Part shown: positions 4,207 through 38,340 of the stretch, one piece after another
How the letters are laid out: every line of letters begins with the position of its first letter
Numbering within the stretch: position 1 is the first letter of the stretch
DNA from: Hemileia vastatrix
Lineage: Eukaryota > Basidiomycota > Pucciniomycetes > Pucciniales > Zaghouaniaceae
Length of the DNA stretch: 64,000 nucleotides
Direction of reading: 5' to 3'
Assembly (NCBI GenBank): GCA_030280995.1
Contig: JASXTE010000017.1
Coordinates: 7,205,001 to 7,269,000, forward strand
Translations under genes and position numbers: made by a program
The notes under the pieces: generated by a model
Seen by the model: the letters and a program-made list of their open reading frames with translations, nothing else
Told to the model about the DNA's origin: nothing
Database searches by the model: none

Positions 4207-4277
4207 AATTTAGAATGTCCACATTCTCCTTCATCAGATCCAGCGTGTTCAGCTTTCTTTCAAAATCTCCCTCTGAC

Positions 4278-4292
4278 ATGGGCCCTTTCTAA
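4278..4292 (+). pseudogene. 5' tip of antisense ORF 1 of B1, cut off by the Plavaka insertion
   Basis: ATG at 4278 lies 82 bp inside the LTR, exactly as in B2 (35398 to 35480). Only four codons and the TAA target site remain before the transposon; the reading resumes at 11620. In B2 the equivalent codons begin the first C-x2-C pair, so the transposon landed inside the cysteine cluster. Confidence 0.6.
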
Positions 4293-6642: not shown

Positions 6643-8234
6643 ATAAGTGGTCAAGTGATAAATGTAGTGGTATCTGGCGTAATGATATGTTTAGTAATAA
6701 GGTATTTTTTTGAGTATAGAATCAATTATCTAAAATAAACAGGTGAATTAAAATCGGAATATACATGGATAACGTCAAGAAAGACAGTGATAATGTGATT
6801 AATAGAGAGAGTTATGAATCGGAAGTATATCCTGCTTATATCAAGAATTGTAATAAAAAATGAAATTGTTTAAAAAAATTGAAAATAATTTAAAAAATTA
6901 TATACTTATTCTCAAACACCTGAACAACAATCAATAATTGAGATGGAAGAGGTATAAGCTTATATATAGCAGTAGCATAAGACAGTCAATGTCAAAAACA
7001 ATATTTAGAAACTTGAAAGAAATGCAAACGAGGGGCTGGAGAAACTTATAAATGTGGAAAAGCAGAAAATCCTAATTTGAAATTAATATTTTAGGTAAAA
7101 TCCAATCATATATGTTGGGGCAGTTTAAGAGCGGAAAGTTATTAAAAGCTGATTTTGATAAAAACAGGAAGTTGGTTCACTTAAAGAGAAAAAAACGCAT
7201 CAGGAGGTGAATACAAAGAGCATGATAAGTGATCTCATTTGGCTAAAAAAATTAGATGGGAGATTGGGTAAATAGAATTTTGGAAAAATGATTGGAGTTT
7301 TGTAAGGATTTAAATTAAGTTGTTTATTATTTTTAAGCTCAGAAATTTTCAAATAAATAATTAAAAGAATAATTACAATCAGAAATTTTCATTGCAACTA
7401 GTTTGAAGATACTGATAAACAGATTATATTTTTAATTTTATGAGCTTGAGGATGGGGTAAATAGTAGAAAAATGGCTCGCTCATGAAGCTCAAATGTCCA
7501 AAAGCAACTAAAAACATATTTTCTTGTTTTAAAGTTTAATATAAAATAAACTAGAATATGATTCAGGAGCCAGAGAGCCTTATGAGCGTGAAAAAGTAGA
7601 AAATCCTAATTTGTAGTTCTCATTGTAGGTATAAAAAAATTAGACTAGAAAATGATTCAGGAGCCAGAGAGCCTTATGAGCGTGAAAAAGTAGAAAATCC
7701 TAATTTTTAGTTCTCATTGTAGGTATAAAAAATATTATACTAGAAAATGATTCAGGAGCCAGAGAGCCTTATGAGTGTGAAAAAGTAGAAAATCCTAATT
7801 TGTAGTTCTCATTGTTGGTATAAAAAAAATTAGACTAGAAAATGATTCAGGAGCCAGAGAGCCTTATGAGCGTGAAAAAGTAAAAAATCCTAATTTGTAG
7901 TTCTCATTCTAGGTATAAAATGATGATATACATACTATTTTAAGTTTATTTGCAAGATCTGCATATTGTTTAAGGAAAATTTCCTTGCCATTTTGATAAA
8001 CCTACAGCGTGTCCACTAATTTAATTTGATTATCTTAAAAGCACCAATTGTTTCCGTTACTGATGTATTTGATCTCCTAGTTTGATTTAAATTTAGCAAT
8101 TGATATGTAGTTTTTCATTATATATGTTGCTACAGCACTTTGTTCTATGTCTGAATGTTATAAATCTTACACTTAATAGAATTTGTCGGCTACTCAACTT
8201 TCAACTGTAAGACAAAATTTAATGAAATAAAAAT
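6643..8234. other. AT-rich spacer between the two transposon genes
   Basis: No coding frame of convincing composition. It contains the tandem array at 7550-7918; the rest is unstructured AT-rich DNA. Confidence 0.6.
7550..7918 (+). repeat. Four tandem ~95-bp repeats
   Basis: Units start with GATTCAGGAGCCAGAGAGCC at about 7560, 7654, 7749 and 7844 (period 94-95) and end in TTCTCATTGTAGGTATAAAA. Copies are nearly identical. A single diverged relative (GAGGGGCTGGAGAAACTTAT... AGCAGAAAATCC) is visible near 7030-7080. The array lies in the spacer between the convergent genes of the transposon. Confidence 0.9.
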
Positions 8235-11127
8235 TTAAACATCTATTTCCATTTCCATGTTGTCTTTATCCATGACATATGCAGTAGTCGATATAAATAT
8301 TTGTAATGGGCTCAATAGTATTGAACGTCTTTTAACCCCCAAAACATATTGACCAAGTGCTCTATAGGCCACTGGGCCAGCTATCATTCTTTTGCTTACA
8401 ACCTTGATATTTCCAGCCCCTGTGATAGCCCTTCGATACACTCCTAACAATTTGAATATTTCACTAATTTCATTATTTTCTTGTACTTCATCCAAGACAT
8501 TGATGCAAACTACTATTCCTTCTTCTTCACCAAACACGTTTACCACTTTTAATACCTTTGCGAATTCTTGTTCTCCATTAGCAAAAACTTCGCAATAGTT
8601 ATTTGGTTTATTCTTTGAAATACTGCTGCCGTTATCTAATTTCAGACTTTGAAGCTCCTTCCCCCACTGATTTAGAATTTTTGATCCTTCCGGGTGTGGG
8701 AACTCAGAATAATGAAAAAGGTTGGGTCCATCTTGTCTATAAAAATATAATATATTATTGTAGAGCTGACCAGTCAATTCTATTTTTTTACTGATAGATT
8801 TATGACTTCTTGATTGATCATCCATATCATTTAGCAAATTCTTCCCCATCAGTCTTTGAAGTTGACAAAACCGACTCATTACTGTTGTTGAAATCTCAGC
8901 TTTTTATTAAAAACAGAACATAAGTTTTAAGTTTTTCTTATATTAGAAAAATAAGTACTAACATTTTTTTTATTTGTTTTTATTTTTTGAATTATGCCAA
9001 TCAATCGCTCACCATAGAATTCTGATATACTTACCAAAGGCACCCACCAGCTAAGTTGTTCTGGAATGTCCCAGGCGTAGTGATTATTAGGACGCTGGCA
9101 TAGCCCCTCCCATATAATTTTTGATGTTCTCATGTATTCGGCATATCTATCTGCAAATTGATTGGGCATATCGGCTGTTACTTCTTTCGAACTAACAATT
9201 TTTGTGCATTGAACAATTGCACAAAAGTTTTGAATGCTAAATTTCTCTTCTCTTAACTGACCCACAAAATCGATTCCATCTAGTATTGTATCTAGCCAGG
9301 CTAATGGTAGATGAACGGAAAACAAATTCATCCATTCACAAGCTTTCAATTTTTCATTCTTTGCTGTTCCGACCCCCTTAGGCACTATAACTTGTCTTAT
9401 TGCTTCAAGAAGTTTTTCCTGTTGCTATTTATCGTAAGTTCTATTCCTTATTCCACTTGACCTATTAGCTTCACTCTCACTTGATTCATACTCAGTAGCT
9501 GATCCATCTAATGTGCTATTATGAGACTTTTTGTTTTTGTTTTTAGGTTTGTGATTCCAACAATCTCGAAAGTGATGACTGAGTACACCTTTATACCAAT
9601 TGTGAAGTATTCCCAGAAAAATCGAATTAAAAGGATCCCAGTAACTGAGATGACTAAGCTCAGACCACCTCACTCCAGTTGCCTGAGTTAACCTTGACTG
9701 ATCAGCCAAAGTACATGCATCTCTCCATTGATGAGAAGTAAAAAGAGTATCTTCCCTTTCTCTCTTTTCACCAAGACTTAATTTACTAATATCTGATTTA
9801 TCTATATGACACCACAAGCAGGGCTTTGCAGAGGAATGAGATGAATATCCACCAACTTTATGTGTTGCCACTATGTCACCAATTAAAGCTACCAATTTAG
9901 CTGTCACAGTTCGACCATTTGGGAACAGGTGAGTTTCAATATGAATACCTTTTTCAATTTTAAGTAACATATCTACTAAAGGATGAAGAATGTTACTGAT
10001 AGTTGCCATATCAGGTTGATTAGGAGCTGGAATAATAGCTGCAAGAAAGGTATATTGACTCTTATGGTACATCCATGGTGGTAGATTTAGACAATACATT
10101 GCGACAACACCTATTGATACTATTTTTCCTGAAATTTTGTTTCCGTAGGGGTTGTAACAATCCACAAACAATGAAAAATCTAAGTTGAGGTCAGTAATTT
10201 TCTTGTTATTAGCAGGCATATCAATCAACAACTCCTTGTACGCATTTGATTGAAGATAATCGTGTATTTTTCCATCAGTTGTTTCTCCCGAATGGGTAGC
10301 CTGCTTTTCAATTTCATTCTCCACATTTGATAAGCCAAGAAGCCAGCCAAGCCAGTCACTAAAGCTTTTAAGAACAAAGCAAATTTTAGGTTTTCTGAAA
10401 CTTTGAAGATTTTCATTTTCAGTATCAAGCAGCAATTCATCAGGTGGGGTGATTTCTTGAAAGAGGTATTCATTGCAAACAGCGGATTGTTGTGTAGGTC
10501 GGTAGCCACACTTATCGGGAGAAATATAAGGATGGTACAAGCAATAAAATTTTGGGCAACAAACAAATTTTTATGTTTTGGGATTTATTTTTAGTCTAGT
10601 AGTAACCGTGCAGATGTCTTTTGGGATCTGGGATATGAAGTAAACTTCGGGTGGCAGGCGGCAGCAATTTCTGACAATGTAGGACATGCACTGAATAATA
10701 TAATTCATCTTCTTGCTACTGATACCACAAACTAGATTTAGCCAGGCAATGAATCCATAGATATGGCCTAAGAAAAACAATAAAAATTAGCCTGTTTATA
10801 TAAGTTGGAAGTTAAAGGTACCATACGTGGTGAGATTGATTTTTCATGATTAATATTGATATCTTCATCAGGAGTTGAAAACCTATGGCCATGGTCTGAT
10901 TTTGAAGCCTTGGGAAAATTAACTGCACTGTTGGATTCCAAAAGATTGAGATTTTGGAAAGATTCGATAAGGGTGCTTTCTACTAGTTGGTGTTTCCTCC
11001 AAGTGGTTTGATGTACGTAGCATCCCTTAATTTCCTCACCAGCCGAATTTAGTGTTGTGAAGTTACTGCATTTTTGACACTGAAAAAATAATGAAGAAAT
11101 TTTTGGTTCTTTGCTAGTATCATTCAT
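8235..11127 (-). pseudogene. Plavaka-type transposase (tnp2 family), decayed
   Basis: Exon 1 starts at ATG 11127 and carries a CQKC pair; an intron of about 59 nt (donor near 10826, acceptor TTAG at 10768) leads to HIYGFIAWLNLVCG. TAA at 10571-10573 interrupts the frame before a CCP...CGYR zinc-ribbon-like segment. The core (10540-9425) holds FSDWLGWLLG, the tnp2-type Asp block LFVDCYNPYGNKISGK, LPPWMYHKSQYTFLAAIIP, C-LWC, and TGVRWSELSHLSYWDPFNS followed by LHNWYKGVLSHHFRDCW, an HNW-x-GVL-x-HHFR form I associate with rust copies. TAG at 9425-9427 breaks it again; the C-terminal part (9385-8927, then 8879-8235) follows through a short intron. The order and length match an intact family member, so this is one gene with at least two nonsense codons. 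Confidence 0.85.
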
Positions 11128-11280
11128 TCTAGTAACAAGTTTTTTTACTGTTGAGAGGTGACTGAGTAGTTATAAGATAGATAATGGCAAGATTTTAAGA
11201 ATTATAGTGCAGCTTAAACCATAAAGAAAACCCTAATATATTTCTTAAGTGTTACTTATCTTAGTAGGGTGAAATTCTGC

Positions 11281-11616
11281 AAATTTTGCACTCAATGGAT
11301 TTTAAACAAGTAGTTTAGTTTTGTCATTAACATGATAAAGCAGTGCACTTTTTTTTGATGCCATATTGTTTCTCTCAAAGACGTAATTAGTCCTATTGAA
11401 GTTTGATAACATTTTTTATTTATGCAGGCAATGAATTGAGCATAAGATGTCATCTTAGTTACCATAAGATGAAGTGAGCCCACATAGCAACATATGAGCT
11501 TGGCTTTAGCTGACAAAGCGGCTGCCCATGTTTTAGTCAATGTGGCACCCTTCCCCAACATCACCTCATTGTCTGCACGACATGAGGCTGGTTTCGTCAG
11601 CTGTTTGTGCGTGGTG
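11281..11616 (-). repeat. Right TIR of the Plavaka-like element
   Basis: Inverted copy of 4293-4616. The ORF readable on the minus strand here mirrors the one in the left TIR. Confidence 0.85.
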
Positions 11617-11619
11617 TAA

Positions 11620-12212
11620 TACTGCATTAACAAAAATCTGATCTGCGCCATCACACCACCAGCTCATTTATACCAAAACTCCTGTGATGTATGCCAAACC
11701 AGAAAGAAGACTTGCTACAGACCAGGTCCATTATCATCTTCAACAGCTTCACCTTCACCTCAACCTGTTCCATCTTCCACCAGCACCTAAAGATCCAGGC
11801 AATCCATCCTGATACCCAGATTAGTCAACAAACTACACCCTTTAAAAAAGAGTTCCAACACCACCACAGCTATAAACAACACCATTCTTGGTCTATCTGA
11901 TGGTAAAAAAAACTTTTATTCCTTCCTTCTACTTTTAAAACTGATGACTTCTCAGTTCCTCCATCTTCTGCCAGTGATTATGACAATGTAGGATCCATTG
12001 AATCACCAACACCTAATCACTTGCCCACCATTAAGGCCAAGTTCCAACAACACTCCTCTGAAAAAAAACACCTTCTACTAAGCTACTTCCAATCCACTCC
12101 TGCTAGAAAACCACAGGACCTTGAGAAAAGGAAGGACTTCATCCACCAGTTCAAAGCTAATGCTGAACACTTTGTTTCATCTCTTGATTCTCTTCTGCCA
12201 CTTGACTCTTGA
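11620..12212 (+). pseudogene. Antisense ORF 1 of B1, main part
   Basis: Runs opposite to gag-pol. After the Plavaka target site the frame encodes the cysteine cluster remnant (SCDVCQTRKKT in the reading matching B2), then a Ser/Pro-rich linker, then an intron from GTAAAA (11903) to CTCAG (11955) at the same place as in B2. Exon 2 (11956-12212) is fully open: SSASDYDNVGSIESPTPNHL, then AKFQQHSSEKKHLLLSYFQ with STPA, then DLEKRKDFIHQFKANAEHF, ending TGA 12210. The C-terminal block recurs in the antisense ORF of gypsy A. Exon 1 has small indels and a TAA near 11789. No database family is evident to me. Confidence 0.6.
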
Positions 12213-12290: not shown

Positions 12291-12690
12291 TCAGTTTACA
12301 GTCTTGGGGGACTTATCCTCAGTTTTAAGTCTTGGGGGACTAACACCCCTCATTTTATAGTCTTGGGGGACTCAAAAACTAAATTATAAAGACAGAACCA
12401 GAGATCAAACCATTAAAGACCAAAGAGATAAACTAACATTCTGGGGTAGCTTTTCTACAGAGCATCCAGCTCATCAGTTACCCCCACACTTGCCTTAACT
12501 AAATTCAGAGACTCCCCCTTTGGATGCCCTCTGCCAGAATTACACCAATACCACATTATCAGTTTATAGTCCTGAAGGACTCAACCATCAAACCATCCTC
12601 AGTTTATAGTCCTGGGCGACTATACCATTTTTCAGTTTAAATTCATGATGGACTGACGATAGAGTTAAGTTTAAATTCTTGATGAACTTT
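12291..12690 (+). repeat. Array of ~23-nt CAGTTTA hairpin repeats in B1 (H1 type)
   Basis: At least seven units CAGTTTAtAGTC-ttgggg-GACT: 12292, 12320, 12350, near 12560, 12599, 12636 and 12668. Each can fold as a 4-5 bp stem with a loop of TTGGGG type. Between them, 12443-12485 is an H4 stem (GGGGTAGC... with CAGTTACCCC). The order matches 36169-36580 in B2. Confidence 0.75.
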
Positions 12691-12785
12691 CCACACTTTG
12701 CATAAAAAGACAGGGCCAATTCCATGCTCAATACTCCACAACCAACCTATTGAACTTCCACTTTCTCTTCATCATCTACCCATTA

Positions 12786-13900
12786 TGGTAAGCTAAACTC
12801 TTAAAGTCGCCTTGCTGTAAGCAGAATCCGGAGGAGATATGTGGATTTAGCTGAAAACCCCGTCCTTCCAATAAAAATAACAAAATGGGAATTCTAAATC
12901 ACTAAGCTAACCAATCTACTTGAATCTGATTGATAAAAATAATGAAACTCTAAATAATTAACGCTTATTGAGATTTAAAGAAAGTGGCTGTTGATAAAAG
13001 AAATACTGATAACAACAATTAAGGTGTACCAGTGAAAGATCTGAAAAGATTGACTTTTATGTTTTTATAATAATTTGAATTTTTATGAGACAGCAATAAT
13101 CAAGTCCCAGCAATGAAGACCTTTCTAAAGATACCCTGTATGAAGTGTGATTTAAATTGTTGAGTAGTATTTCTAAAATGTTATATAAAATATAAAGTTA
13201 TAAGGGTATTACAAATTTATTTAATTTCTTGAGTAATAAAAAATGAGACCGTGGTGGTTAATGATTAAGCTGTATGATCTGTCCCCCCTCTCAATTTCGA
13301 GTTTGAGAGGCGCTTAAGTATTCCTAGTCACGTGCCTAAGTTTTCCCCTCCAGAGCTCTCCCAGAGTCAATCCGGAGCCCGTACGGAGCCGGAACAGAGT
13401 CCGTACGGAGTCTGTACGGAATCCGTCCGGACTTCCGGACTCAATTAGAACCTTAAAACTATAATAAAAAATCTAGAAAAATTACATATAATAGAGCTAC
13501 TGCCCCTTTACATACCAAACTAATTTTCGTAGTCTGCGCAGCTCTAATTAACCCGTGAAAATTCATCAAAGTTAAGTAATTTTTGAAAACATAAATATTT
13601 CTATAAAACTTTAAAATTCATTTAAAAATATAAGAAAAATAGTAAAAATTCTGGGAAAATTTCCCAAGGTTCTTGAGTGACTTGACTTGATACTTATGAA
13701 TTTTTCAGACCGTAAAAATAAGTTTTCTCCGTAAAAAAAATTGTATTTGTGTAGGCATTTGCTCGTGACCAATTTCTTCATATTTTAAACTCCAATAAAT
13801 TAAATAAAACCCTTTTATAAAAAATAATAACGCCAATCTTGCATGCCGTAATAACTCCATTTAGGTACTTAGGTGCCATACTAAACTTTAGGCTACCACA
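12786..13900 (-). repeat. 3' LTR of gypsy A
   Basis: Direct repeat of 24221-25302. It contains a GC-rich patch at about 13375-13440 built of repeated CCGTACGGAGT-like palindromic units; the other LTR has lost about 33 bp of this patch. It ends directly at the polypurine tract TCCTCCCTCC (+) at 13901. Confidence 0.95.
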
Positions 13901-14023: not shown

Positions 14024-14717
14024 ATGTCTTCCAAAGAACTTGTCGCTCCATGTGAACTCTGCGCTTGATACCAGGTACCTTGTTTAATGTCCAACCCTAA
14101 TCTTCCTGGCAGGACAGCTTGTGACTTATGCCGTGTGAAAAAAGTCAAATGTAACCGGCCATTAGTTCCTTCTAAAAAAAACGTATATTTAGGACCAGCA
14201 GCTCTCCCTGATCCCTCAACTTCTAAAAAGCGATCCAAAATTCCTGTCTTCTTAAAACAAATAAGATCAAAAACAGCTTCAAAAGTTCAATCTTCATCAG
14301 CGGATCCCGGCCTAATTTTGCCTTCACAAGATCCTAATCCTATAACGCCAGTGCCCCCAACTAACTTTGCTGAGACTATGTTTCCTGGCTCTAAATGTAA
14401 GACCCTATTTATCTTACTAAAAAAAAACTTTTAATCAAAATTGACTAAACCTATGACTTAATAACGTATTTGAACTTCTAGCTGTCGAAATAACCAACAC
14501 TGATGATGTTGGTAGAGTGAAGACGGACTATATCAATCATTATCCAAATTTTCATTGCTATCTTTTTCTTGACTTTACTAACGAGTTGAAACGAAAAATG
14601 CTGGCCTATTTTCAAGAAACTCCAGCTAATAACCATGAAGACCTCATGAAAAGAAGAATTTTAATGCAAAGCTTTGATAATGATGTTGAACAATTTCAAA
14701 GAAATTATCTTTTCTAA
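14024..14717 (+). pseudogene. Antisense ORF of gypsy A: Zn2Cys6-like cluster plus YFQxTPA domain
   Basis: Opposite to gag-pol, 124 bp inside the 3' LTR. Exon 1 (14024-14396) reads MSSKELVAPCELCA, an in-frame TGA (14066), then YQVPCLMSNPNLPGRTACD followed by LCRVKKVKCNRP. Counting the stop as one residue, the cysteines follow C-x2-C-x6-C-x12-C-x2-C-x6-C, the spacing of fungal Zn2Cys6 binuclear clusters, with the basic R-x-KK-x-KC half placed second instead of first. A basic, Ser/Pro-rich linker follows. Intron 14397-14481 (GTAAGA...CTAG) joins in frame to exon 2 (14482-14717), which is open and ends NELKRKMLAYFQETPANNHE, DLMKRRILMQSFDNDVEQF. Without the single TGA it would be about 200 aa. B1 and B2 carry homologous ORFs in the same place. 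A DNA-binding role is inferred from the cysteines only. Confidence 0.7.
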
Positions 14718-15303: not shown

Positions 15304-16118
15304 CCAGTTTAGAGTCATAGTTGACAGTGATAAATTAAAATATTGAATTGAGTTATCCAAACAAGATTGACATTCCGGTTTATAGTCTTGGTGGACCAAA
15401 CATATAATCGATTGCCAGTTTATGGTCTTGGTGGACCAAAGATCGTTTAGGTGCATAAATAACTTGATAAATTCCTAAATAAGGCCTAGGCTTGACCAAA
15501 GATTGAATAAATTTGATAATCCAGTTCAATGTCATAGTGGACCGAACATTTGATCGACAAGTAATCCAGTATAAGGCCATAGTGGTCCAATGAATGTTGA
15601 ATTATCCTGCAGATATTAATTTTCCAGTTTAAAGTCATAGTGGACTAAACAATGAATGAACTACCAGTTTAAAGTCATGGTGGACCAAACATTTAATCAA
15701 TAAGAAATCCAGTTTAAGGTCATGGTGGACCCAACAGCTTGATAATAGTCCAGTTTAGGGTCTTGGTGGACCTAACATTTGATAACACTCCAGTTTAAGG
15801 TCTTGGTGGACCTAACATTTGATTTATATAAAAAAAAAATCTGTCTCCGAAAATATCCATAAAATCTTGATCATCCTTGAAATTCAGTTTAAAGTCTTGA
15901 AGGACTAACAGCTCCAATATAAAATCTTTAATGAAAGTCTTGAAAATTAGCCAGTTTAAAGTCTTGGAGGACTAACAGCTCCAAAATTTGTATAAAACCT
16001 TAAAGAACGTCTTGAACAGTAGCCAGTTTAAAGTCTTGGAGGACTAACAGCTCCAAAATACGTATAAAAACCTTAAAAAACATCTTGAACAGTAGCCAGT
16101 TTAAAGTCTTGGAGGACT
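15304..16118 (+). repeat. Array of 14 CAGTTTA hairpin repeats in gypsy A (H1 type)
   Basis: Units begin CCAGTTTA or near it at about 15304, 15375, 15415, 15521, 15566, 15624, 15664, 15709, 15750, 15790, 15895, 15951, 16023 and 16096. Each continues into AGTC-ttggag-GACT or GGTC-ttggtg-GACC, a 4-5 bp stem with a six-base loop. Spacing is irregular (38-106 bp), and the DNA between units is AT-rich and, except for the last few units, unrelated. A further unit is at about 16840-16862. Confidence 0.85.
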
Positions 16119-16249
16119 AACAGATGTCTTGAAGTAAAATCCCATAGGTATTGAGTTCCCCTAGACTCTGTTTCCTGTCTAAACAAAATGAATAAACTAA
16201 AAAGAATGAAGACTAAAAAAAAACTAAGAAATATAATAATTTTGGTTTA

Positions 16250-16400
16250 TTTAATTAATTTTTTTTTATTTTATTATTTTATTTTTATTTTTTTTATAAT
16301 TATTTTATTTATTTTATTTTTATTTTATTTTTATTTTATTTTTATTTTTATTTTATTTTTAATAATATATATATATATTTTTTTTTTTATATATTTTTAA
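16250..16400 (+). repeat. T-rich microsatellite in gypsy A
   Basis: ATTTT/ATTTTT runs (A-rich in element sense). The tract sits between the hairpin array and the H3 block, the same position as the T-rich tracts at 26429-26530 (B1) and 38341-38960 (B2). Confidence 0.9.
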
Positions 16401-16522
16401 TTTAAAATAAAATATTTTAGAAAAGATAGTTTTGAAATAAAAGTTAAAATTTAATTTTAAAGAAAGATAAAAAAAAGTAATAAAAAATAATTATCAAAAT
16501 TAAAATTTTAAAAGATGCCCCC

Positions 16523-17306: not shown

Positions 17307-20300
17307 TTAGACTTCGGCACTCCTGGTGCCTCTAGGATAGAACCGTTTCACTTGATCGGCTGCTACCCTCTTCTTTAATACTACTCCATCCAACTCTTCT
17401 AGCACATATGAACCGCCGGAAACTTGCTCCTTGATTTTATATGGTCCATTCCAGCTATCTGCAAACATCTTTCCCCACTGACTTTCCAAACTCCTATTAT
17501 ACACCAAGACCATATCTCCTGGATTCAAAGGTTTCCTTAATCAATGTGCCAACCGCTCATCCCAATATCTAACTGATTGGTTTCTGATCTTCATCATCCG
17601 CGAATATGCCTTTTCTAAATATTCTTCTTTCTTTTCTAGCTGTATCATTCTTGCACACAATAATTCTTCAGTAGTTTTGACCGTGTCCCAGTCAACTCCA
17701 AGATATGATTCAGCTTCTAAATCAACCGGTAAAACTGCTTTCTGTCCAAAAACAAGTTCATAAGGTGAAAATCCGGTCGTCCTTTTTGCAGTGATTTGAT
17801 CAGCAAATAAGACTAAAGGTAAATAGTGCCTCCACTTTTCAGCACTTGTCCCACACATTTTAACTAAAGCATCCTTAATAACTTGATGACCTCTTTCAAC
17901 CATGCCTTCAGCTTTGGGATAATATGGGGTTGCTACCCTAACCTTTGATCCAACTTTCAATACGGCCTCTTTAAACTCTGTCCCAAATTCAGGACCTCCA
18001 TCTACCGTTACCAACTTCATCACCCCATACCTATATACCCAATTATTCAAAAAAAATTTTGCCACATTTTTGGCAGTTAAATTAATAATAGGCGCTGCCT
18101 CTACCCAACCAGATAAATCATCTCTGGCCACAATTAAATATTTATACCGTCCCTCTTTTATATGAACGGCATCTAAACTAACTCTTCCAAAGAGCGTATA
18201 TTCACTGGTTGTGCGTCCAGGTTCTTTCAGCCTTAAATAACTTCGTCTTTGACATTCTTCGCATGACTGAACCCACTGTTTAACATCCATCTTCATGCCA
18301 GGCCACCAAAATCGATCAGAAATTCTTCTAAAAGTTTCTCCAACGCCTCTATGCCCGAGATCTTCATGCAGTGATTTCAAAACTAATTCTTGCCCCTTCT
18401 CTTGAGTTATAACTACTTGAGGATTTGGATACCTTCTCCTCATTAAACGTCGACCAGATAGGTAAAAAGTAGATGACTTCCTCTTGATAGCCACCCATTC
18501 ATTGTCTTCACAATCTTCTGGCCTCTCTAAAGTCAACAAATATTTGACTAACAAAAAATAAAAACCAGTCTGACCCCAGACTTCATCTTGAAAATCGATT
18601 AATATAACATCAATAGGGACTTCTCTATCACCAATATCACCTGCACATGAATGAGCCAATAATCGTTGACCCCTAAGTAAATCTTTAATCGAGCTATGTC
18701 GACGTTTTTCTTCTGAACCTTTGGATCCTTTGTAAAGCGTATTTGAAAATACCTCTTTCTCTTTATCCACCCTTTTATTTAAATTCTCTAATTCTCCAAC
18801 ATATACACCATTCCTTAATTTACTACTATCCCACACTACCAATCCATCTTCCTCTACATACACCACATCTTCTTCTACCTCCTCTCTGCCGAATTTATCT
18901 ACACCTTTTCCAACACCTCTATTAACATAAAAACTATTTTCCAGTTTATCCTCTTGGTGGAGGTCATCATCACCATAATCTAAACACAATAGTCCTGCCA
19001 GTTTAACCTCATGGGGGAGGTATGGAAAGTCTTCAGCTCCTTTAGTGCTGGCTTTGATGATAGGTATATCTTCATCGAACTCTTCTGAGTCTGAATCTTC
19101 TTCAGTGGGTGGTCTCCTTGATAAACCATCTGGCATAGTAAAAGTTTTGCCAGGCTTATGAACTAAATCAAACAAAAAATGTTGAATAAAAGCTACCCAT
19201 CTCTTCATGGGTGCGTTCGGTAAACTTGGGGAATTAATCATCTGGATTAACGATTTTGCATCCACTTGCAACTCAAAATGTTGCCCCCACAAAATATGCT
19301 GAAGTTTCTTCAGTATTTTGGCCACACCACATAATTCCAATTTTGGTTGATAATATCTTGATTCGACCTCAGTAAATACTACAGATTCATACCTAACTGG
19401 CCTGATGTAACCAGCTTTATCCATCTGAGACAAAACCGCTCCAGCTGCAACCTGACTTGAATCAACTGCTAAATAAATTCTACCAGCATCTTTTCCATAA
19501 TCCAACTTGTGCAGGACTAAATCCTTCCCCACAACCTCCTTCAACTTCACAAAAGCCTTCTCACACTCTTCATCCCACTCCCAGTCTGCATCCTTTCTCG
19601 TTAACCGTCTCAATGGAGCTGCCAATGAAGAAAAGTCCTTCATAAACATTCTAACATATACACAAACGCCTAAAAACCCTCTAACTTTGGTCGTATTCTT
19701 GGGTCTTGGCCAGGACTGAATTTTGTTAACTTTCTTCTTGGACATAATCCTACCCTCTCTACATACCACATGGCCTAATATTTCTAAGGCTGGCACACAA
19801 CATGAAAATTTTGAGCCTGAAATAGTTAAACCAGCCTCTTCAATTCGAAACAAGATTCTTTCCAAAGTAATTGCAAACTCCCAAATGAATTTGCGTATCC
19901 CAGGATTCTCTTCCAACACCTGGTTATCATAGTCGGTTGTTGGTCCCTTAATTCCTCCATCATATATAAAGATTCCAGCATATTGTGGAATTTCATCTTG
20001 AAGGATCCAAGCCATCTGAGCTTGATAAACTGCAACCGAATTTGTTGCTCCTTGAGGTAATCTTGTTAACTGTAAACGTCCAAGTGGCGTATCAAATGTA
20101 GTTAGAGGCCTTGAGTCTGGATGTAACTCTCTCTCATCATATCCACCCATAATATCTCCCAAACCATAACACACTCTTCCTGCAAACGCTTCAACAAACT
20201 CTTCAGCACTAGGCGGTATCCCAGCATCCTTTATTGTAACCCTATTTAATTCCCTAAGATCATGAACAACTCTAAGCTTGCCATTCGGTTTCTTGATACA

Positions 20301-21290
20301 AAATACCAGACTAGAATAACTTGACGTTGATTGCTCATACAGTCCAGTGCGTATCCGTTCTCTGACAACTTCGATATAAGCTTCTTTCAATGCAGCGGGA
20401 ATAGGAATCGGTTTCTGCTGCCACGGTTTATGACATACCACAGGAATCTTGTAAGGCTCCCCATAGGAATGCTTCAACACACCCATCTCCTCTTCTACAA
20501 AAGCAATGGCCTTCTCTCACTTGACCATCACATCCAACAACAACTTCTTCTCTTCTCCAGACAACCAACCATCAGGTCCAAAATTAACAACACCCAGTCT
20601 CTCAAAAGTGATTCTTGACGTCTCAGAAAATTCAGGCGGATTCTTTACCAAGGGACTTTCATAAGGATCTCTTGATAACCTTGGTCTTCTCAAAGGTGGA
20701 TTTAATTCAGCAGGTAGCGGTTCATTAATAGGTCGAACTTTATTTGCTACTTTCTTATATTTGGCTGCGTCCACATCTAAATAAACTTGAGGTAAAACAT
20801 TTTCTTTTGTATCGCCATTAAAACTTTCATCAAATGAATCTTCTTCATTGCCAGAATCAGAATAAGAAAAATTAGAAAAATATTTTATTTCATTATTAAA
20901 TTTTACCCTTTTCTCCTTTCCCTCGTCTAATTTATAAACAGATTTTCCAACACCTTTGCTTCCCTTATCCAACAGTAAATCACCCGTAAATAAAGTCGGC
21001 AGTTTAACCTCTTGATGGAGGACCGGAATTGAATTTTCACAAAAATTATTTTTTTGTGTTTTAATTATACTGAGATTTTTTATCGGGATTTGATGAGATA
21101 ATTGCATTTTACCCTCTTGCTGGAGGTCAATAATAGAAGGTGATAATTTCAGTTTAACCTCTTGCTGGAGGCCATAAAACATACCCTTCCAATTTTTATC
21201 CAACCTAATTTGGCCCATATTGCCTTTTTTATTATTTTTAAATTTAATAGAAAAACTGGGTAAATCCAATAAACATATAGAAAAGTCCAA
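17307..21290 (-). pseudogene. pol: pol of gypsy A: RT, RNase H, integrase
   Basis: From 21290 the frame runs through a linker (residues ~1-170) and RT N-terminus, then TGA 20517-20519, the 981-codon segment 20486-17541, TGA 17541-17543 and the last 73 codons to 17307. All pieces share one frame. RT: YSSLVFCIKKPNGKLRVVHDL, LPQGATNSVAVYQAQM, then FIYDGGIKGP where B1 and B2 have FIDD, so the first catalytic Asp is lost. RNase H: IYLAVDSS, SRYYQPKLELCGVAK, FTMPDGLSRRPP. Integrase: HEDLGHRG...CEEC zinc finger, then SLDAVHI, VTVDGGPEF and EGMVERGH (D, D, E), ending in a GPY/F-type module (WNGPYKI...RFYPRG). No chromodomain is seen. Both TGA codons replace an Arg found in B copies (CGA to TGA would suffice). 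Confidence 0.92.
18941..19020 (-). repeat. Two H1 hairpins inside the pol reading frame of gypsy A
   Basis: CAGTTTA-CCTC-ttggtg-GAGG at 18941-18963 and CAGTTTAA-CCTC-atgggg-GAGG at 18998-19020, in the spacer between RNase H and integrase. On the minus strand they encode DLHQEDKLE and LPHEVKLA. Three more lie in the linker before RT (21000, 21105, 21150), encoding LHQEVKL, LQQEGKM and LQQEVKL. The stem is CCTC/GAGG here instead of AGTC/GACT in the non-coding arrays, with the same flank and loop. Confidence 0.75.
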
Positions 21291-21360
21291 AACCTATTTT
21301 CACTCCAAAGTAATATTAACAGAAAATAATTGAGAATCCACTTGAATTATCTCCAAGTGA

Positions 21361-21420
21361 GCTGACCTATTGCAATCGGGGATCTCATCCTCAGGAGAGA
21401 TTACAACATTAGAGTGATCA
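21361..21420 (-). other. Conserved hairpin at the protease-pol junction of gypsy A (H5)
   Basis: GAGCTGACC (+) is followed by TTGCAATC, a short loop region, GATTACAA and then TGATCAGCCC, so inner and outer arms can pair. The equivalent places in B1 (31797-31865) and B2 (44150-44215) keep the arms with changed sequence. It lies in the non-coding gap between the protease stop (21428) and the pol frame. Confidence 0.5.
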
Positions 21421-21427
21421 GCCCCTG

Positions 21428-22147
21428 CTACCCCAAAAAATGAGGGCTTTCATCCCTTTCCAACAAACATAATTCACCAGAAGCCGTCCGTTTTATATGC
21501 CGCTTCTTGGTGCAAACACAACACTGGCACAGAGTAGTAATCCCTGGCCGTGTTTCCCAACCTTCATCTCCAGGAGGCGCTAACCGCATATGTAACCTCC
21601 GCATATCTTCACCAGTGATCTCCAAACTAATCCCCATGCCAGCTTGATACCCTATCCTGTCCTCAAAATCAATCAAAAAAGGACCACCAAGAACAGTTTT
21701 GACTGCTCCTCTGGCCACATAAAAGTGAAACTTACCAACAGATCCACCAATGCCTAACCTGACATGCTCAGCTGTACCCATCAGCTCTGTTGCATGCCCT
21801 CCAATGCCTCTGAGGTTTCCCCCAGTGCCACTTTTAATTGGCAAGCCTATACTCGTTGCTTGCTCCAATGAAATTAAATTAATTTGAGACCCTGAATCGA
21901 CCAAGGCCTTTACTTCTTTACCATTAAGAGTTACCACCAGGTAACCCAGGGGAGCAGAAAAATGAGTATCTACATCTTCCCCAAACTTTTTGGCATTTTC
22001 ACAAATATATTCCACCTCTCCAGTGGAAACCCGACGCCTCGTCAAATGCTTCTTTTGCTTTTCAGCAAGCACCGGACTAATCGTAAATAACTCCCCCAAA
22101 GATAAGGGAATCTGCAGTTGATTCACCCTATTCAAAACTGCGTCCAT
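21428..22147 (-). CDS. Protease region of gypsy A
   Basis: Aspartic protease segment downstream of gag and in a different frame. Residues from ATG 22147 include RRRVSTGEVEYICENAKKFG, then the active site ALVDSGSQINLISLEQA (D-S-G intact), then the flap region RGIGGHATELMGTAEHV and VLGGPFLIDFEDRIGY, ending in a CQCC-V-C-TKKRH tail. The real coding region probably continues upstream of the ATG in the same frame, joining gag at the G-run near 22247. In B1 the equivalent gag and protease segments are in one frame. Function: processing of the Gag-Pol polyprotein. Confidence 0.85.
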   Translation of the reverse strand: MDAVLNRVNQLQIPLSLGELFTISPVLAEKQKKHLTRRRVSTGEVEYICENAKKFGEDVDTHFSAPLGYLVVTLNGKEVKALVDSGSQINLISLEQATSIGLPIKSGTGGNLRGIGGHATELMGTAEHVRLGIGGSVGKFHFYVARGAVKTVLGGPFLIDFEDRIGYQAGMGISLEITGEDMRRLHMRLAPPGDEGWETRPGITTLCQCCVCTKKRHIKRTASGELCLLERDESPHFLG

Positions 22148-22244
22148 CGCATTAGCTTGACCAGAAACTACTGGCCGCTCATACTGGACCTTTGATTTAA
22201 CAACCTTGGCCCTGGGTACCTCTTGAGGTCCAACCGAGCCATCT

Positions 22245-24041
22245 TCACCCCCCCATTATAACATCTTCACTTTCTATAACCCTAACTCCGTCACCAGCTT
22301 CTTGCACTAATCCTGATCCATCGCTAGTCCTTCTTACTCCCTCCATTGGGATGGGACCGCTAAAACTTGGTCTGGGTAGAGACGCCAACGGTACATCCTC
22401 CTCAGAATCCGAATCATCCTCTGGCATAGGCTCACCATTTAAATCAAACTTTCCATAACTAGGGGGCCCCATATCAGCAATCCCCTTCTGCATTTTATAT
22501 AATTCGTCCTTAGAGTAAGGGTTCAATTTGTTGGCGGCAGTTTGAGCACTAGAATTCTTGTCCTTAGAGTAAGGGTTCACTTTGTTATTGTCCTTGCCAG
22601 GATTAGCCCTCAATTGGCTCTGAATGCTACTTTTCGCCTTAGTAGCAGCTGCTCTTCTAGCAGCATTAACATCGTATTTGCCAGCCATACAGCTACCCTC
22701 CACCTGGGCAACCGTCGCCAGCTCTAAACTACCAAAAGAAGTAGAAAATGTGGCTTTACTGACCTCTTTCTCCTTGCCCTTGTCAGCTTTACCACCATTA
22801 CCATTACCATTTTTGCCACTCTTAGCATTAACATCTTCATCCGTCACCTCTTCAAATCTGGCTCTTCTTTCAGCCATTAAACTTCTTCTGACCAAATCAG
22901 AAGGAGACTGTCCATCACTGGGCTTGATGAACAAACCATCGGGAAATTTATAAACTTTACCATCAAATAAAAGTCGCCCAGCATCCATATCCTTATCAAG
23001 AGCAAAACAAACTGTTGCTCTGTGCCCTCTCCTATTACAATAGGAGCACACCTTTGGCTCATTGTAGCCACCTCTATATCCATTACTACCACCATTCCCA
23101 CCATTTCTCCCATTGCCTGGGAAGCGGTTACGGTTGTTATTGCCATTATAATTTCGACGTTCATACCCTCTAGACTGATAAGAAGTTGACGTCGACGAAG
23201 AAGCAATTGGGGCCTTATTGGCCTTCTGGGTTTCTTGAACAAATATTTTTAATTGTTTCGTTAAATCGGCCAGGTGATCGACCATCTTATTATCTACATT
23301 ACCCTCAACTTTAGCAGCAGGTAATCCCATTTGAGCCTTCTTGGCCTCCTGGGCTTTGAACATAATATTGTTGTTTTCGGCCAAAACTTCGCTAACCTTG
23401 CTAACATATTGAGTGCATGACTCTTGATATTTGTCCAACGCCAATAACTTTAGATGGGCTTGAATGTTGTCCTTGATAACCTCCAGAGCCGGCAGTTTCT
23501 GCTCACCATTAGGCAGTTCCTTCATCAAATCTTTTCTTGAAAGATCATTCAAGACGTCCATACAAATATCCCTGCTGCATGCTGTCCAAAACAAATCTTT
23601 TGCTTGGTTCTCATGCACTAACTCGTCCACCAGTATGAGATATTCCACCACTTCATCAAACTGAACACAGAGCTTTTTGAAGTCAGCCATAGAAGAAACT
23701 CCACCTTTTGCTTTCCAGTCTCCAACAATTTTATTGAGGTCCATCATAGTAAACCTAACACCCCATCTATCAACCATAGATTTAGAAAGCTTAACCCAAT
23801 CCTTGTCCTTGAATGCCTGCATAGCAATAACCTCTTTTTCCAGCTCCCTATCAGCAATAAAAAATCTAACTTGCTTCACCATGTCCACATGAGAAGCACC
23901 ATCAACAGCAGCAGCAGCTTCATACCTGCTAATGAACCATTTAACCTCAACCACATCAAACTTTGGGCCATCCCAAGAAACAATTCTAACTGAGGGAGTA
24001 AGAGGGTTAGAAGATCCAGAAGCAACAGCAGAAGAAGACAT
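22245..24041 (-). CDS. gag: gag of gypsy A with CCHC zinc knuckle
   Basis: A 598-aa open frame from ATG 24041 to TGA 22245. The N-terminal half is a helical capsid-like region (WFISRYEAAAAVDGASHVDM, VDRWGVRFTMMDLNKIVGDW, LPALEVIKDNIQAHLKLLAL). A Gly/Asn/Arg-rich linker leads to one CCHC knuckle (CSYCNRRGHRATVC, C-x2-C-x4-H-x4-C) at about residue 340, followed by KVYKFPDGLFIKPSDGQ. The acidic C-terminus ends GGG-GGG-TGA; a +1 shift there enters the protease frame. It is the least damaged gag in the window. The 5' LTR and PBS lie 150 bp upstream. Confidence 0.92.
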   Translation of the reverse strand: MSSSAVASGSSNPLTPSVRIVSWDGPKFDVVEVKWFISRYEAAAAVDGASHVDMVKQVRFFIADRELEKEVIAMQAFKDKDWVKLSKSMVDRWGVRFTMMDLNKIVGDWKAKGGVSSMADFKKLCVQFDEVVEYLILVDELVHENQAKDLFWTACSRDICMDVLNDLSRKDLMKELPNGEQKLPALEVIKDNIQAHLKLLALDKYQESCTQYVSKVSEVLAENNNIMFKAQEAKKAQMGLPAAKVEGNVDNKMVDHLADLTKQLKIFVQETQKANKAPIASSSTSTSYQSRGYERRNYNGNNNRNRFPGNGRNGGNGGSNGYRGGYNEPKVCSYCNRRGHRATVCFALDKDMDAGRLLFDGKVYKFPDGLFIKPSDGQSPSDLVRRSLMAERRARFEEVTDEDVNAKSGKNGNGNGGKADKGKEKEVSKATFSTSFGSLELATVAQVEGSCMAGKYDVNAARRAAATKAKSSIQSQLRANPGKDNNKVNPYSKDKNSSAQTAANKLNPYSKDELYKMQKGIADMGPPSYGKFDLNGEPMPEDDSDSEEDVPLASLPRPSFSGPIPMEGVRRTSDGSGLVQEAGDGVRVIESEDVIMGG

Positions 24042-24216: not shown

Positions 24217-24220
24217 ACTA

Positions 24221-25364: not shown

Positions 25365-26252
25365 ATGGCTCAATCTTCTGCTTTTGACCCAGATCCTCCT
25401 TTCTTCACTACTCCAAAAGTCTATGCTTGAAAACAGTGTATCCACATGTGCAGACCTTGCACTTTCACTCTTCCAACTCCTGAGGCCAAACTCTACAACA
25501 GGGCCTGTGATTCTTGCAACTCCAAAAAACAATTTGACAGAGACCCCAATTATCTTATACCACCACCTTCACCTTCACATAAATATATCTCCAGATACCC
25601 TACTATATCCTTAGAATTTAGTCCTGCTTCTTCTTCTTTAACTTCAGCTCCATCCAGAAGATCCCTGGTACTCCACCACTAGTACCAAACCAAACTGAAT
25701 CAAGCAACAGTATTAAAAACAAAAACAAAAGCCCTGCTGCTCCAACTAGGCCACAGGAACAACTTCATCCTAGTTCATATTTTCAACACCATTTAGAGGA
25801 TGACCAAGAAAATCTATACTTCCATTCAAAATCCTTCAACAATCCAAATTTGGGCTGCTTACAAATTTGATGAGCTTCCAATCTGTAAGTACCAAATTAA
25901 TCAATCCAATTTCTTCAACAGAAAAAAATTACTGATCCAATTATTCTGTTTAGTTGGCACCCTGCCTTGTGAAGCTACTATTTGGATTGGCCAACCTCTA
26001 GAAACCACATTGACACTGGATTACATCAATATTAAGAAACACCTAAGTAAGATGTGTTCAAAAATGCTAAAAGCCTTTGCTCTTCATGGGCCATTGAATG
26101 AATTTGAAAAGAACCTGAGGAAAAAACTTCTTGATGACCACTGGAAGATGTCTAGGATAATTAAGCACACCTTCCAACACTCCCTCCCAGCCTCTTCTAT
26201 TTCTACCCAAAATTTACCTTCAAATCCTGTTCCTGAAAATTACAATCCCTAA
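25365..26252 (+). pseudogene. Antisense ORF 2 of B1
   Basis: ATG 25365 opens MAQSSAFDPDPPFF...VYA, then TGA at 25428 where B2 has TGC (Cys), then KQCIHMCRPCTFTLPTPEA, LYNRACDSCNSKK. The cysteines repeat the C-x2-C-x6-C...C-x2-C-x3-KK plan of antisense ORF 1 with a 15-residue spacer. A Ser/Pro-rich region (shorter than in B2) ends in a stop near 25680. An intron from GTAAGT (25884) to TTTAG (25953) joins in frame to the C-terminal block GTLPCEATIWIGQPLETTLT, LDYINIKKHLSKMCSKML, KAFALHGPLNEFEKNLRKK, ending 26252. The same block is in B2 at 37850-38123. No known family recognised. Confidence 0.6.
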
Positions 26253-26428
26253 ACTCTCTCCAGAAGACTACACCACAAGGAACACAGTGCTTCCTCCAAT
26301 CCCAACAAGAAACAAAAACACCAGCATAATCCGGACCAACCGTCAGAAGCTTCTTCTTCCAGACATTAATAAAAAAAAGAAATTAATAATTCACTAAACA
26401 GAGAAAACAATAATAATTAGCAGATATA

Positions 26429-34370: not shown

Positions 34371-34374
34371 GAAT

Positions 34375-35479: not shown

Positions 35480-36090
35480 ATGGGCCCTTGCCAATACTGC
35501 ATTTACAACAATCTGATCTGCGCCATCACAACACCAGCTCATCCATACCAAACCTCCTGTGATGTCTGCCAATCCAGAAAGAAGACTTTCTACAGCACTG
35601 GTCCATTATAATCTTCAACAGCTTCACCTGCACCTCAACCTGTTCCATCTTCCACCAGCATTAAAAGATACAGGCCATCCAGCCTGATACCCAGATTATT
35701 CAACAAACCACACCCTTCAAAAAAGAGTGCCAAAACCACTACAGCAATCAATACCACCATGCTTGGTCCATCTGATGGTAAAAAATTTTATTCCTTCCTT
35801 CTACTTTTAAAACTGATGACTGCTCAGTTTGTCCATCTTCTGACAGTGATGATTAAAATGTAGGATCCATTGAGCCACCAACACCTAACCACTTTCCCGC
35901 CATTAAGGCCAAGTTCCAACAACACTCCTCTGAACAAAAACACCTTCTAATAAGCTACTTCCTATGCACTCCTTCTAGAAATCCACAGGACCTTGAGAAA
36001 AGAGACACCTCATCCACCAGTTCAAGGCTAATGCTAAAAATTTTGTTTCATCTATTGATTTTATTCTTCCACTTGAATCTAGATTGAAGT
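35480..36090 (+). pseudogene. Antisense ORF 1 of B2
   Basis: ATG 35480, 82 bp inside the LTR. MGPCQYCIYNNLICAITTPA continues HPYQTSCDVCQSRKKTF: cysteines C-x2-C-x6-C-x12-C-x2-C, exactly as in gypsy A, with the sixth Cys absent. TAA at 35609-35611, then the same frame continues basic and Ser/Pro-rich (RYRPSSLIPRLFNKPHPSKK) to the conserved donor at 35778 and acceptor CTCAG at 35827. Exon 2 matches B1 exon 2 (HFPAIKAKFQQHSSEQKHL, then SYF-x-x-TPS) with one TAA near 35855 and a frameshift in the last third. Confidence 0.6.
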
Positions 36091-36580: not shown

Positions 36581-36742
36581 TTGATGGACTTTTCACACTT
36601 TGCATAAAAAGACATGGCCAATTCCATGCTCAATACTCCACAACCAACCTACTGAACTTCCACTTTCACTTAATCATCTACCCATCAATGATAAAATTTT
36701 CCTTTTATCTCTTTTCTATTCATTGTTTTCTCATCACAGATG

Positions 36743-38123
36743 ATGGCTGTATTTCCTGATTTTGACCCAGATCTTCCTTGCTTCACTGCTCCAAAGGACT
36801 ATGCTTGCAAAAAGTGCATCCACATGTGCAGAACTTGCAATTTCACTCTTCCAACCCCTGTTTCCAAAATCTACAACAGGACCTGTGATTCTTGAAACTC
36901 CAAAATGAAAAAAATTTGACAAAGACCCCAATTATCCTATACCACCATCTGCAACTTCACATAAATACATCTCCAGATACCCTACTAGATTCCCAGAACT
37001 TTGTCCTGCTTCTTCATCTTTATCTTTTGCTCCATCCAGAAGATCCCAGCAATCAGTTCCCAGAACACTCTTTAAAAGACCTTCTTTATCCTCTCAAGAA
37101 ACTGCCTTTATCTCTGCAAATTTAGCACAAACAGCTCCAAAATCAGCTCCCAGGCGGCCCTCCCACCTTGCTAGAAAGCAAAAATAAGGCTCAAAATCTT
37201 CAAATTCATCCAGAAAACTACTAAATTCAACCAAAAAACACCAATAACTCCACGCAACAACCTCCTAGTGCTCCCAGAGAAATGGGGTCAAAGTTTTCTA
37301 CATCTAAAAATGCAAAAAATCCAAAATCTTCTAGAAGACCTTTTAGAGGGCCCCAATAAGACACCAGAGCACCAGACACTGCTTCCAGAAAATAATCTCC
37401 CTCTTAACCAAGAAAAATCAACTACACCTCTGCTCTTCCAGCCAATTATGCATCTAACAGTTCAATTTATTCCAGCACTTCATCCAGAAGAGACCAATCA
37501 GCTTCCAGGTCACCTTCTTCTTCTCCATCCTACAACAACCCTGGTACTCCACCACCATTACCCAATCAAACTGAACAAAGCAAAAATATCAACAACAACA
37601 ATAAAAGTTCTACTTCTTCAACTAGGCCAAGGAAAAATCCTTATCCTAGTTCATATTCTCCACACTATTTAGAGGATGGCCAAGAAAATCCATATCTCCA
37701 CCTGGTTGATCCTTCTACTATCTCCATTCAAACCTTTAAACAGTCCAAATTCCGATTGCTTACAAATTTTATGAGCTTCTAATCTGTAAGTACCAAATAA
37801 ATTAATCCAATTTATTCCACAGAAAATAATTACTGATCCAATTCTCCTGTTTAGTTGGCACCCCACCTCCTGAAGCTACTATTGGGATTGGCCAACCTCT
37901 GGAAACCACATTGACACTGGATTATGCCAATATAAAGAAACACCTAAGTATGATGTGTTCAAACATGCTTAAGGCCTTTGCTCTTCATGGGCGGCTGAAT
38001 GAATTTGAGAAGAACTTGAGAAAACAACTTCTTTACGATCACTGGAAGATGTCCAGGATAATTAAGCACACCTTCCAACACTCCATCCCAGCCTTCTCTG
38101 CTTCCACCCAAAAATTACCTTAA
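36743..38123 (+). pseudogene. Antisense ORF 2 of B2
   Basis: MAVFPDFDPDLPCFTAPKD, then YACKKCIHMCRTCNFTLPTP, then NRTCDS and TGA where B1 has TGC. So B1 and B2 each lost a different cysteine of the cluster to TGA. A long Ser/Pro/Gln-rich middle (37000-37680) is broken by stops and indels; in B1 about 650 bp of it is missing. The intron (GTAAGT near 37784) and C-terminal block (LDYANIKKHLSMMCSNML, KAFALHGRLNEFEKNLRKQ) are kept, ending at 38123. Confidence 0.55.
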
Positions 38124-38340
38124 AATCCAGTTCCTGACCATTACAATCCCTACACTCTCTCCAGAAGACTACACCACAAGGCACACAGTAAATCCTTGAA
38201 TACCAACAAGAATAAAAAACACCATCATAATCCAGACCAACCATCAGAAGGTTCTTCTTCCAGACATTAATTATAGAAAAAAAGAAATTAATAAATTACT
38301 AAATGGAGAAAACAATAATAATCAGCAAAGATATAAAAAA

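What the first reader, a model, noticed from the sequence alone, without database searches (positions are those of the whole stretch)
14024..14717. A conserved antisense gene with a Zn2Cys6-like cluster between pol and the 3' LTR of rust gypsy elements
Seen: A (14024), B1 (4278/11620) and B2 (35480) each carry, opposite to gag-pol and 82-124 bp inside the LTR, a two-exon ORF with the cysteine plan C-x2-C-x6-C-x12-C-x2-C-x3-KK. In A a sixth Cys follows after six residues. After an intron at an equivalent place comes a C-terminal domain with LxYFQxTPA and DLxKRx[FL] motifs. A and B have unrelated LTR sequences, so shared spacing and domain order point to selection on the protein. Known: the spacing equals fungal Zn2Cys6 clusters, but here the basic R-x-KK-x-KC half is second, a permuted order. 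Some plant gypsy lineages (for example Grande, Retand) have antisense ORFs in this place, but I know of no such zinc-cluster protein in fungal ones. Inference: a DNA-binding regulator expressed from a reverse LTR promoter.
Basis: partly seen in the sequence, partly recalled or inferred. Interest (0 to 1): 0.92.

Follow-up and report, generated by a model that had tools for sequence, protein, structure and literature searches.

The report
Antisense zinc-cluster genes in fungal retrotransposons
Retrotransposons in this very large genome carry, on the strand opposite to their own replication genes, one or two small genes (apparently with one intron each) for a probable DNA-binding zinc protein whose two halves are in swapped order; comparisons suggest selection to keep them working, so the elements may make their own regulator.

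Summary
All three window copies are broken (A: TGA at codon 15; B1: stop and DNA-transposon insertion; B2: stops, frameshift), but the host genome holds intact relatives: of 20 A-family loci with start and splice anchors (of 30 fetched by protein similarity, so biased), 16 encode a 202-residue spliced protein. The cluster is C-x2-C-x6-C-x12-C-x2-C-x6-C. Its second triplet passes Pfam Zn_clus but matches only profile positions 1-15; B2's first triplet weakly matches 18-35, so the halves are reversed. B-type elements carry a second antisense gene with the same plan (x15), intact (500 aa) in locus L041. L041, not chosen by protein similarity, gives dN/dS 0.13-0.42 against B1/B2. A and B gene 1 are homologous in both exons, in the coding frame only. 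Against: no codon bias between B1 and B2 gene 1; shared variants among A copies are not more synonymous. Exon 2 is predicted to be a helical hairpin. A LTRs hold an 11-bp-phased CGG array, a candidate target; B1/B2 LTRs do not. DNA binding, splicing and antisense promoter are inferred. Antisense genes are known in plant Retand and Botrytis Boty elements; this zinc-cluster type was not found in my literature searches.

The parts
14024..14396 (+). A gene 1 exon 1: permuted zinc cluster (CELCA*YQVPC-x12-CDLCRVKKVKC); in-frame TGA at 14066
   Evidence: open in many genome copies
14397..14481 (+). A gene 1 predicted intron, GT-AG, phase 1 (most of it lost by an 82-bp deletion in a 7-locus subfamily)
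14482..14717 (+). A gene 1 exon 2: predicted helical hairpin with LAYFQETPA..DLMKRR
12784..13898 (-). A 3' LTR (gene 1 starts about 126 bp from it); 5' LTR at 24219-25301, 95.3% identical
13371..13440 (.). CGG/CCG cluster in the A LTR with an 11-bp unit around CCGTACGGAGT; candidate operator
17541..24041 (-). A gag and pol reading frames (protease, RT, RNase H, integrase)
4278..4292 (+). B1 gene 1 start, cut off by a DNA transposon
11618..12212 (+). B1 gene 1 remainder (CDVCQTRKKTC; a stop in exon 1; intron 11903-11955; exon 2 open)
35480..36090 (+). B2 gene 1 (CQYC..C..CDVCQSRKKTF; intron 35778-35827; stops and a one-base gap); end approximate
25365..26361 (+). B1 gene 2, second antisense gene (TGA where L041 and B2 have the first Cys of the cluster; intron 25885-25953); end approximate
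36740..38270 (+). B2 gene 2 (CKKCIHMCRTC-x15-CDS*NSKMKK; intron 37786-37854; stops and frame changes); end approximate
15417..16120 (+). 9 direct copies of a motif near AGTTTAAAGTCTTGGAGGA between A gene 1 and pol; also 12561-12650 (B1) and 36254-36520 (B2), between gene 1 and gene 2

Best explanation
These gypsy-type elements carry accessory genes on the strand opposite to gag-pol, just inside the 3' LTR: one seen in A, two in the B-type copies. Each is predicted to be spliced once. Each encodes a protein with an N-terminal binuclear zinc cluster of the Zn2Cys6 kind in which the two Cys triplets stand in reversed order, followed by a C-terminal domain (a helical hairpin in gene 1). Shown by computation: coding frame, homology, open copies, low dN/dS between B-type copies, Cys plan, and Pfam match of the basic half. 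Inferred: zinc and DNA binding, splicing, pairing of proteins through the hairpin, and transcription from a reverse promoter in or near the LTR. The most likely job is a trans-acting regulator of the element's own LTR, working like antisense regulators of retroviruses or as proposed for plant Retand antisense proteins. In A the likely target is the 11-bp-phased CGG array in what should be U3.
For: A 202-aa spliced frame in 16 of the 20 loci with both anchors, out of 30 fetched. Pfam Zn_clus 25.8 bits over a cut-off of 21 for an open copy. PPR1 best solved chain (E 0.003), GAL4 next of its kind (E 0.36). dN/dS 0.26 and 0.36 (gene 1), 0.13-0.42 (gene 2) between L041 and B1/B2. A-B similarity in the coding frame only, pN 0.42-0.44 with pS 0.72-0.83. 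GT-AG introns of phase 1 in gene 1 of A, B1 and B2 and in gene 2 of L041 (arithmetic). A subfamily that lost most of the intron kept one open frame in 6 of 7 loci. Helical hairpin model, 34 of 77 residues at pLDDT 90 or more. CGG cluster of the A 3' LTR reached by 0 of 1000 dinucleotide shuffles.
Against: No expression, splicing or binding data. Gene 1 of B1 and B2 differs evenly over codon positions, and its exons (88% identical) are more diverged than intron (98%) and 3' flank (93.5%) (Fisher p 0.0008). The N-terminal part of gene 2 gives dN 0.15 against dS 0.11 between B1 and B2. Among 30 A loci, shared variants are no more synonymous (7 syn, 12 nonsyn) than singletons (24, 37), and pN/pS is 0.90 within the deletion subfamily. 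The LTR stretches at 34373-35398 and 46640-47140 have no CGG/CCG and B1's has 6 without a cluster. Clusters of 7-8 in 120 nt occur in 3 of 11 loci around another gypsy group. The fold model of the cluster is weak (mean pLDDT 71.5) and matched nothing in PDB. Gene 1 and gene 2 C-terminal parts are not detectably related. Full-length gene 2 has no Pfam hit.
Confidence: 0.55

Rival explanations
1. The protein works on RNA or in the particle: a Tat/Rev-like RNA-binding factor or nucleic-acid chaperone that uses a small basic zinc cluster.
For: Small basic cluster; no LTR target is evident in B1 and B2. The A gag frame has a CCHC-type zinc knuckle (CSYCNRRGHRATVC, read), so zinc-based nucleic-acid binding is in use in these elements.
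Against: The basic half in A is the CxxCRxKKxKC form of DNA-binding Zn_clus; gag already offers a knuckle of its own.
Confidence: 0.18
2. The protein guides integration or represses rival copies (copy-number control, superinfection exclusion).
For: Many related places in the genome (12980 first-look candidates, 150 scored); in gene 1 the B1-B2 exons differ more than intron and flank, as diversifying proteins can.
Against: No chromatin-reader domain among the Pfam hits; the exon excess rests on one pair of decayed copies.
Confidence: 0.14
3. A captured fragment of a host Zn2Cys6 transcription factor without a role in the element.
For: Pfam Zn_clus match. Host Zn2Cys6 genes were not searched for.
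Against: Reversed triplet order, presence in A and in three B-type copies, two genes with one plan, dN/dS 0.13-0.42 between B-type copies.
Confidence: 0.06
4. The antisense transcript, not the protein, matters (RNA interference or transcriptional interference); the frames are incidental.
For: A known possibility for antisense transcripts (PMC7264820, passages); no codon bias between B1 and B2 gene 1.
Against: Frame-specific protein similarity, low dN/dS, open copies.
Confidence: 0.04

Closest known systems
Plant Retand-lineage gypsy antisense ORFs (TRP28, PF04195)
   Different: Different domain: no PF04195 hit among those listed at E up to 1 for gene 1 and gene 2; zinc cluster and intron here, while the words zinc and intron do not occur in that paper's main text
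Botrytis Boty-like elements with antisense gene brtn
   Same: Fungal element with an additional antisense gene (title in the reference lists of PMC7264820 and PMC8365987, and a methods passage of the latter)
   Different: brtn sequence not seen; relation cannot be judged
Fungal Zn2Cys6 transcription factors (GAL4, PPR1; PF00172)
   Same: Two C-x2-C-x6-C triplets, CRxKKxKC basic half in A
   Different: Triplets in reversed order; proteins of 202 or 500 aa; encoded in a retrotransposon
HTLV-1 HBZ (named in a PMC11963269 passage; workings recalled)
   Same: Antisense-coded regulator of a retroelement; its place by the 3' LTR is recalled
   Different: HBZ is a bZIP protein (recalled), not a zinc cluster

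Membership tests
Zn2Cys6 transcription factor (PF00172) | Six Cys as two C-x2-C-x6-C triplets | tested here: met
   Open A copies; gene 2 of L041. Gene 1 of B2 and of L041 each lack one Cys
Zn2Cys6 transcription factor (PF00172) | Pfam score above the gathering cut-off | tested here: met
   A gene 1 only, 25.8 over 21 bits. Not met by window A (19.5), B2 gene 1 (15.9), a 70-aa piece of gene 2 (13) or full-length gene 2 (no hit)
Zn2Cys6 transcription factor (PF00172) | Basic triplet first, second triplet after it (match along the whole profile) | tested here: not met
   Match covers profile 1-15 only and lies C-terminal; first triplet of B2 matches 18-35; no Cys follows the second triplet in A exon 1
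Zn2Cys6 transcription factor (PF00172) | Binds two zinc ions and CGG-type DNA (recalled) | not testable with these tools
   No binding data; the CGG array in A LTRs is circumstantial
Antisense accessory ORF of LTR retrotransposons (aORF-3R) | Conserved ORF between pol and 3' LTR, antisense to gag-pol | tested here: met
   Window A, B1 and B2; 30 of 30 fetched A loci have the LTR tail and the 3' flank
Antisense accessory ORF of LTR retrotransposons (aORF-3R) | Present in all or most copies of the element | tested here: inconclusive
   Loci were found through the gene itself; an unbiased sample was not obtained
Antisense accessory ORF of LTR retrotransposons (aORF-3R) | Antisense transcription | not testable with these tools
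   No RNA data
Retand TRP28 | PF04195 domain | tested here: not met
   Not among hits at E up to 1

The most novel reading that the evidence does not exclude
A lineage of gypsy elements evolved its own family of transcription factors: circularly permuted Zn2Cys6 proteins made from spliced antisense genes, present as two genes in B-type elements, which in A bind a CGG array that expands and contracts in the LTR, so that regulator and number of targets co-evolve inside one mobile element.
Probability: 0.3. Interest if true: 0.85.

Novelty: new variant of a known kind. Interest (0 to 1): 0.64.

Why it matters
The function of antisense accessory genes in LTR retrotransposons is called unknown in the two papers read in part here (PMC7264820, PMC11963269). 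This family has a recognisable DNA-binding-like domain, open copies, measurable selection and, in A, a concrete candidate target in the LTR, so the question becomes testable. A permuted Zn2Cys6 cluster would also show that the two halves of this fungal domain can be swapped.

Tried and rejected
Processed-copy idea: seven A loci matched the spliced protein in one frame, which at first looked like reverse-transcribed spliced mRNA. Alignment showed one shared 82-bp deletion, set off 20 bp from the predicted splice site, inside ordinary elements. Rejected: it is one subfamily, not evidence of splicing.

Homologues elsewhere: three protein-database searches gave nothing (19 candidates, none at E 1e-3; 3205 candidates, none at E 1; no candidate). 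Viral contigs with pol and with gene 1 and genome contigs with pol gave no relatives. Whether these collections hold close kin of the host is not known.

Homology of the C-terminal parts of gene 1 and gene 2: not found. Fold search of the cluster model: no match. A first dN/dS run on exon 2 used a wrong frame for B1 and was redone.

Searches behind the statement that this type was not found in print: (open-access full text only), with (permuted clusters; large rust genomes) beside them. For these I saw listings of the best rows, not every paper; passages were read in PMC11963269, PMC7264820 and PMC8365987.

Full report
What was checked. The window lies at G000:C50:7205001-7269000 of an unnamed 748-Mb genome in 791 contigs. 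A, B1 and B2 have their gag-pol on the minus strand. A has gag, protease and RT/RNase H/integrase frames, LTRs at 12784-13898 and 24219-25301 (95.3% identical), and sits inside B1 with an apparent 4-bp duplication CCAT. The A antisense gene is on the plus strand about 126 bp from the 3' LTR: exon 1 at 14024-14396, a phase-1 GT-AG intron at 14397-14481, exon 2 at 14482-14717.

More than chance. The six-Cys plan occurs once in six frames of 64 kb (in A, read across its stop) and the five-Cys-KK form once, in B2. Sixty mononucleotide shuffles in 200-nt blocks averaged 0.0 for the exact five-Cys-KK plan and 0.15 for the five-Cys plan without KK. A and B are alike only in the coding frame: exon 2 (A with B1) scores 106 against at most 46 for other frame pairs, exon 1 (A with B2) 90 against at most 35; for exon 1, 0 of 1000 shuffled proteins reached 90. 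BLASTP of A exon 2 with B1 exon 2 gives E 1e-13 and 35% identity over 65 columns.

Open copies. A search of the own genome with the stop-free A protein gave 12980 first-look candidates, of which 150 were scored. Thirty loci were fetched; they are the best by protein similarity and so biased towards open copies. Twenty had both the start and the splice anchors; 16 of these encode 202 residues and four stop early, at 12, 14, 14 and 168. In all 30 the LTR tail and the 3' flank are present. Seven of the 30 share an 82-bp deletion that removes most of the intron and fuses the exons in frame. In six of the seven no stop lies inside the match; one has a TAA. Of the six, L013 opens only after a TGA at codon 15, L010 lacks the usual start, and L015 has Phe for one Cys.

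A second gene. B1 (25365) and B2 (36740) carry another antisense gene with the plan C-x2-C-x6-C-x15-C-x2-C when both copies are compared (each has a stop at one of the Cys) and an intron before the C-terminal part. L041, fetched as the flank of a control locus, is a third B-type copy (74-79% DNA identity to B1/B2). It has gene 1 with a shifted start and one Cys changed to Gly, and gene 2 open throughout: 500 residues after removal of a 68-bp intron, with all six Cys (CKQCIHMCRPC-x15-CDSCYSKKKKC). In the three other 6-kb control flanks (L039, L040, L042) the cluster pattern was not found in six frames.

Selection. L041 was not chosen by protein similarity. Against B1 or B2 it gives dN/dS 0.26 (gene 1 exon 2), 0.36 (gene 1 exon 1), 0.16 and 0.13 (gene 2 exon 2), 0.20 and 0.42 (gene 2 N-terminal part); against A it is 36-39% identical in protein with dS saturated. 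B1-B2 gives 0.34 for gene 2 exon 2 but dN 0.148 against dS 0.115 for its N-terminal part. A against B: dN 0.63-0.67 with dS 2.3 or saturated. Against constraint: gene 1 in B1-B2 shows even changes over codon positions, and exons more diverged than intron and flank. Among A copies pN/pS is 0.31 for 23 intron-bearing loci (biased), 0.90 for the 7 deletion loci and 0.50 between them, and shared variants are not richer in synonymous changes (7 to 12) than singletons (24 to 37). Decay after insertion may explain part of this.

The domain. An open A exon 1 scores 25.8 bits against Zn_clus (cut-off 21), but only on profile positions 1-15, matched by the second triplet; window A after its stop scores 19.5. 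The first triplet of B2 matches positions 18-35 below the cut-off (15.9 bits, E 0.014). A 70-aa piece of gene 2 matches positions 2-16 at 13 bits with its second triplet; the whole gene 2 protein has no hit. Among solved chains PPR1 is best (E 0.003) and GAL4 follows (E 0.36). No further Cys follows the second triplet in A exon 1, so the order is reversed rather than shifted. The swap is plausible because the two triplets of GAL4 are pseudo-symmetric and share two bridging Cys (recalled). AlphaFold2 gives exon 2 as a helical hairpin (residues 21-45 and 51-76; mean pLDDT 75.7, 34 of 77 residues at 90 or more, two sequences). The cluster model is weak (mean 71.5, three sequences), has helices at residues 3-10, 12-16 and 26-39 beginning near each CxxC, and matched nothing in PDB.

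Candidate target. The window is poor in CGG/CCG (252, against 708 by base composition), yet the A 3' LTR has 14 within 120 nt (0 of 1000 dinucleotide shuffles; 5' LTR 7, reached by 6 of 1000). In the four genome copies measured, CGGAG repeats at 11 bp or 22 bp; over 30 loci my unit count runs from 2 to 12, and 29 of 30 have a 120-nt window of 7 or more. The L041 LTR side has 8 (1 of 1000 shuffles reaches it), as a GC-rich patch without that unit. B1 has at most 3 and the other two B LTR stretches none. Three of 11 control loci of another gypsy group reach 7 or 8 (two of the three are near-identical copies), without the 11-bp unit in the stretches printed. CGG binding by Zn2Cys6 proteins is recalled knowledge. 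A second shared feature is a direct motif near AGTTTAAAGTCTTGGAGGA, its pattern written after reading the sequence: 9 in A (between gene 1 and pol), 2 in B1, 3 in B2 and 5 in L041 (between gene 1 and gene 2), none on the other strand of the window, none in three control flanks or in 27.9 kb of other-gypsy loci.

Verdict. A real, conserved antisense gene family of a known general kind (antisense accessory ORFs; plant Retand, Botrytis brtn) with an unusual domain. Mechanism: probably a self-encoded regulator of LTR transcription; not shown.

Noticed in passing
window 15417-16120, 12561-12650, 36254-36520; L041 3473-3860: A directional repeat near AGTTTAAAGTCTTGGAGGA lies downstream of gene 1 in A, B1, B2 and L041; the pattern had no match in the control loci examined.
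   Followed up: partly
window 4293-11616: A CACTA/Plavaka-like DNA transposon (Transposase_21 above and Plavaka just below the Pfam cut-off; terminal inverted repeats about 330 nt; apparent TAA duplication) is inserted in B1 gene 1.
   Followed up: partly
window 3112-4295, 34373-35497, 46699-47136: B1 and B2 appear to share one LTR between them (LTR-B1-LTR-B2-LTR), a tandem arrangement.
   Followed up: no
window 16240-16440, 26430-26560, 38303-38950: A TTTTATTTT-rich low-complexity stretch lies at a like place in A, B1 and B2, between the antisense gene(s) and pol; it is longest in B2.
   Followed up: no
L009-L015: A seven-locus A subfamily with a shared 82-bp deletion turns the two-exon gene into one frame.
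   Followed up: yes
A codon 15 (14066); L013, L021, L023: TGA at the same codon in 4 of 31 copies aligned; the codon reads Arg in most of the proteins printed.
   Followed up: no
L029: On the other strand from its A-type gene, locus L029 holds a B-type gene 2 stretch with CDSCYSKKKQC.
   Followed up: no
window 52979-55020: Long nested inverted repeats (arms of 425 and 156 nt, 87% complementary).
   Followed up: no
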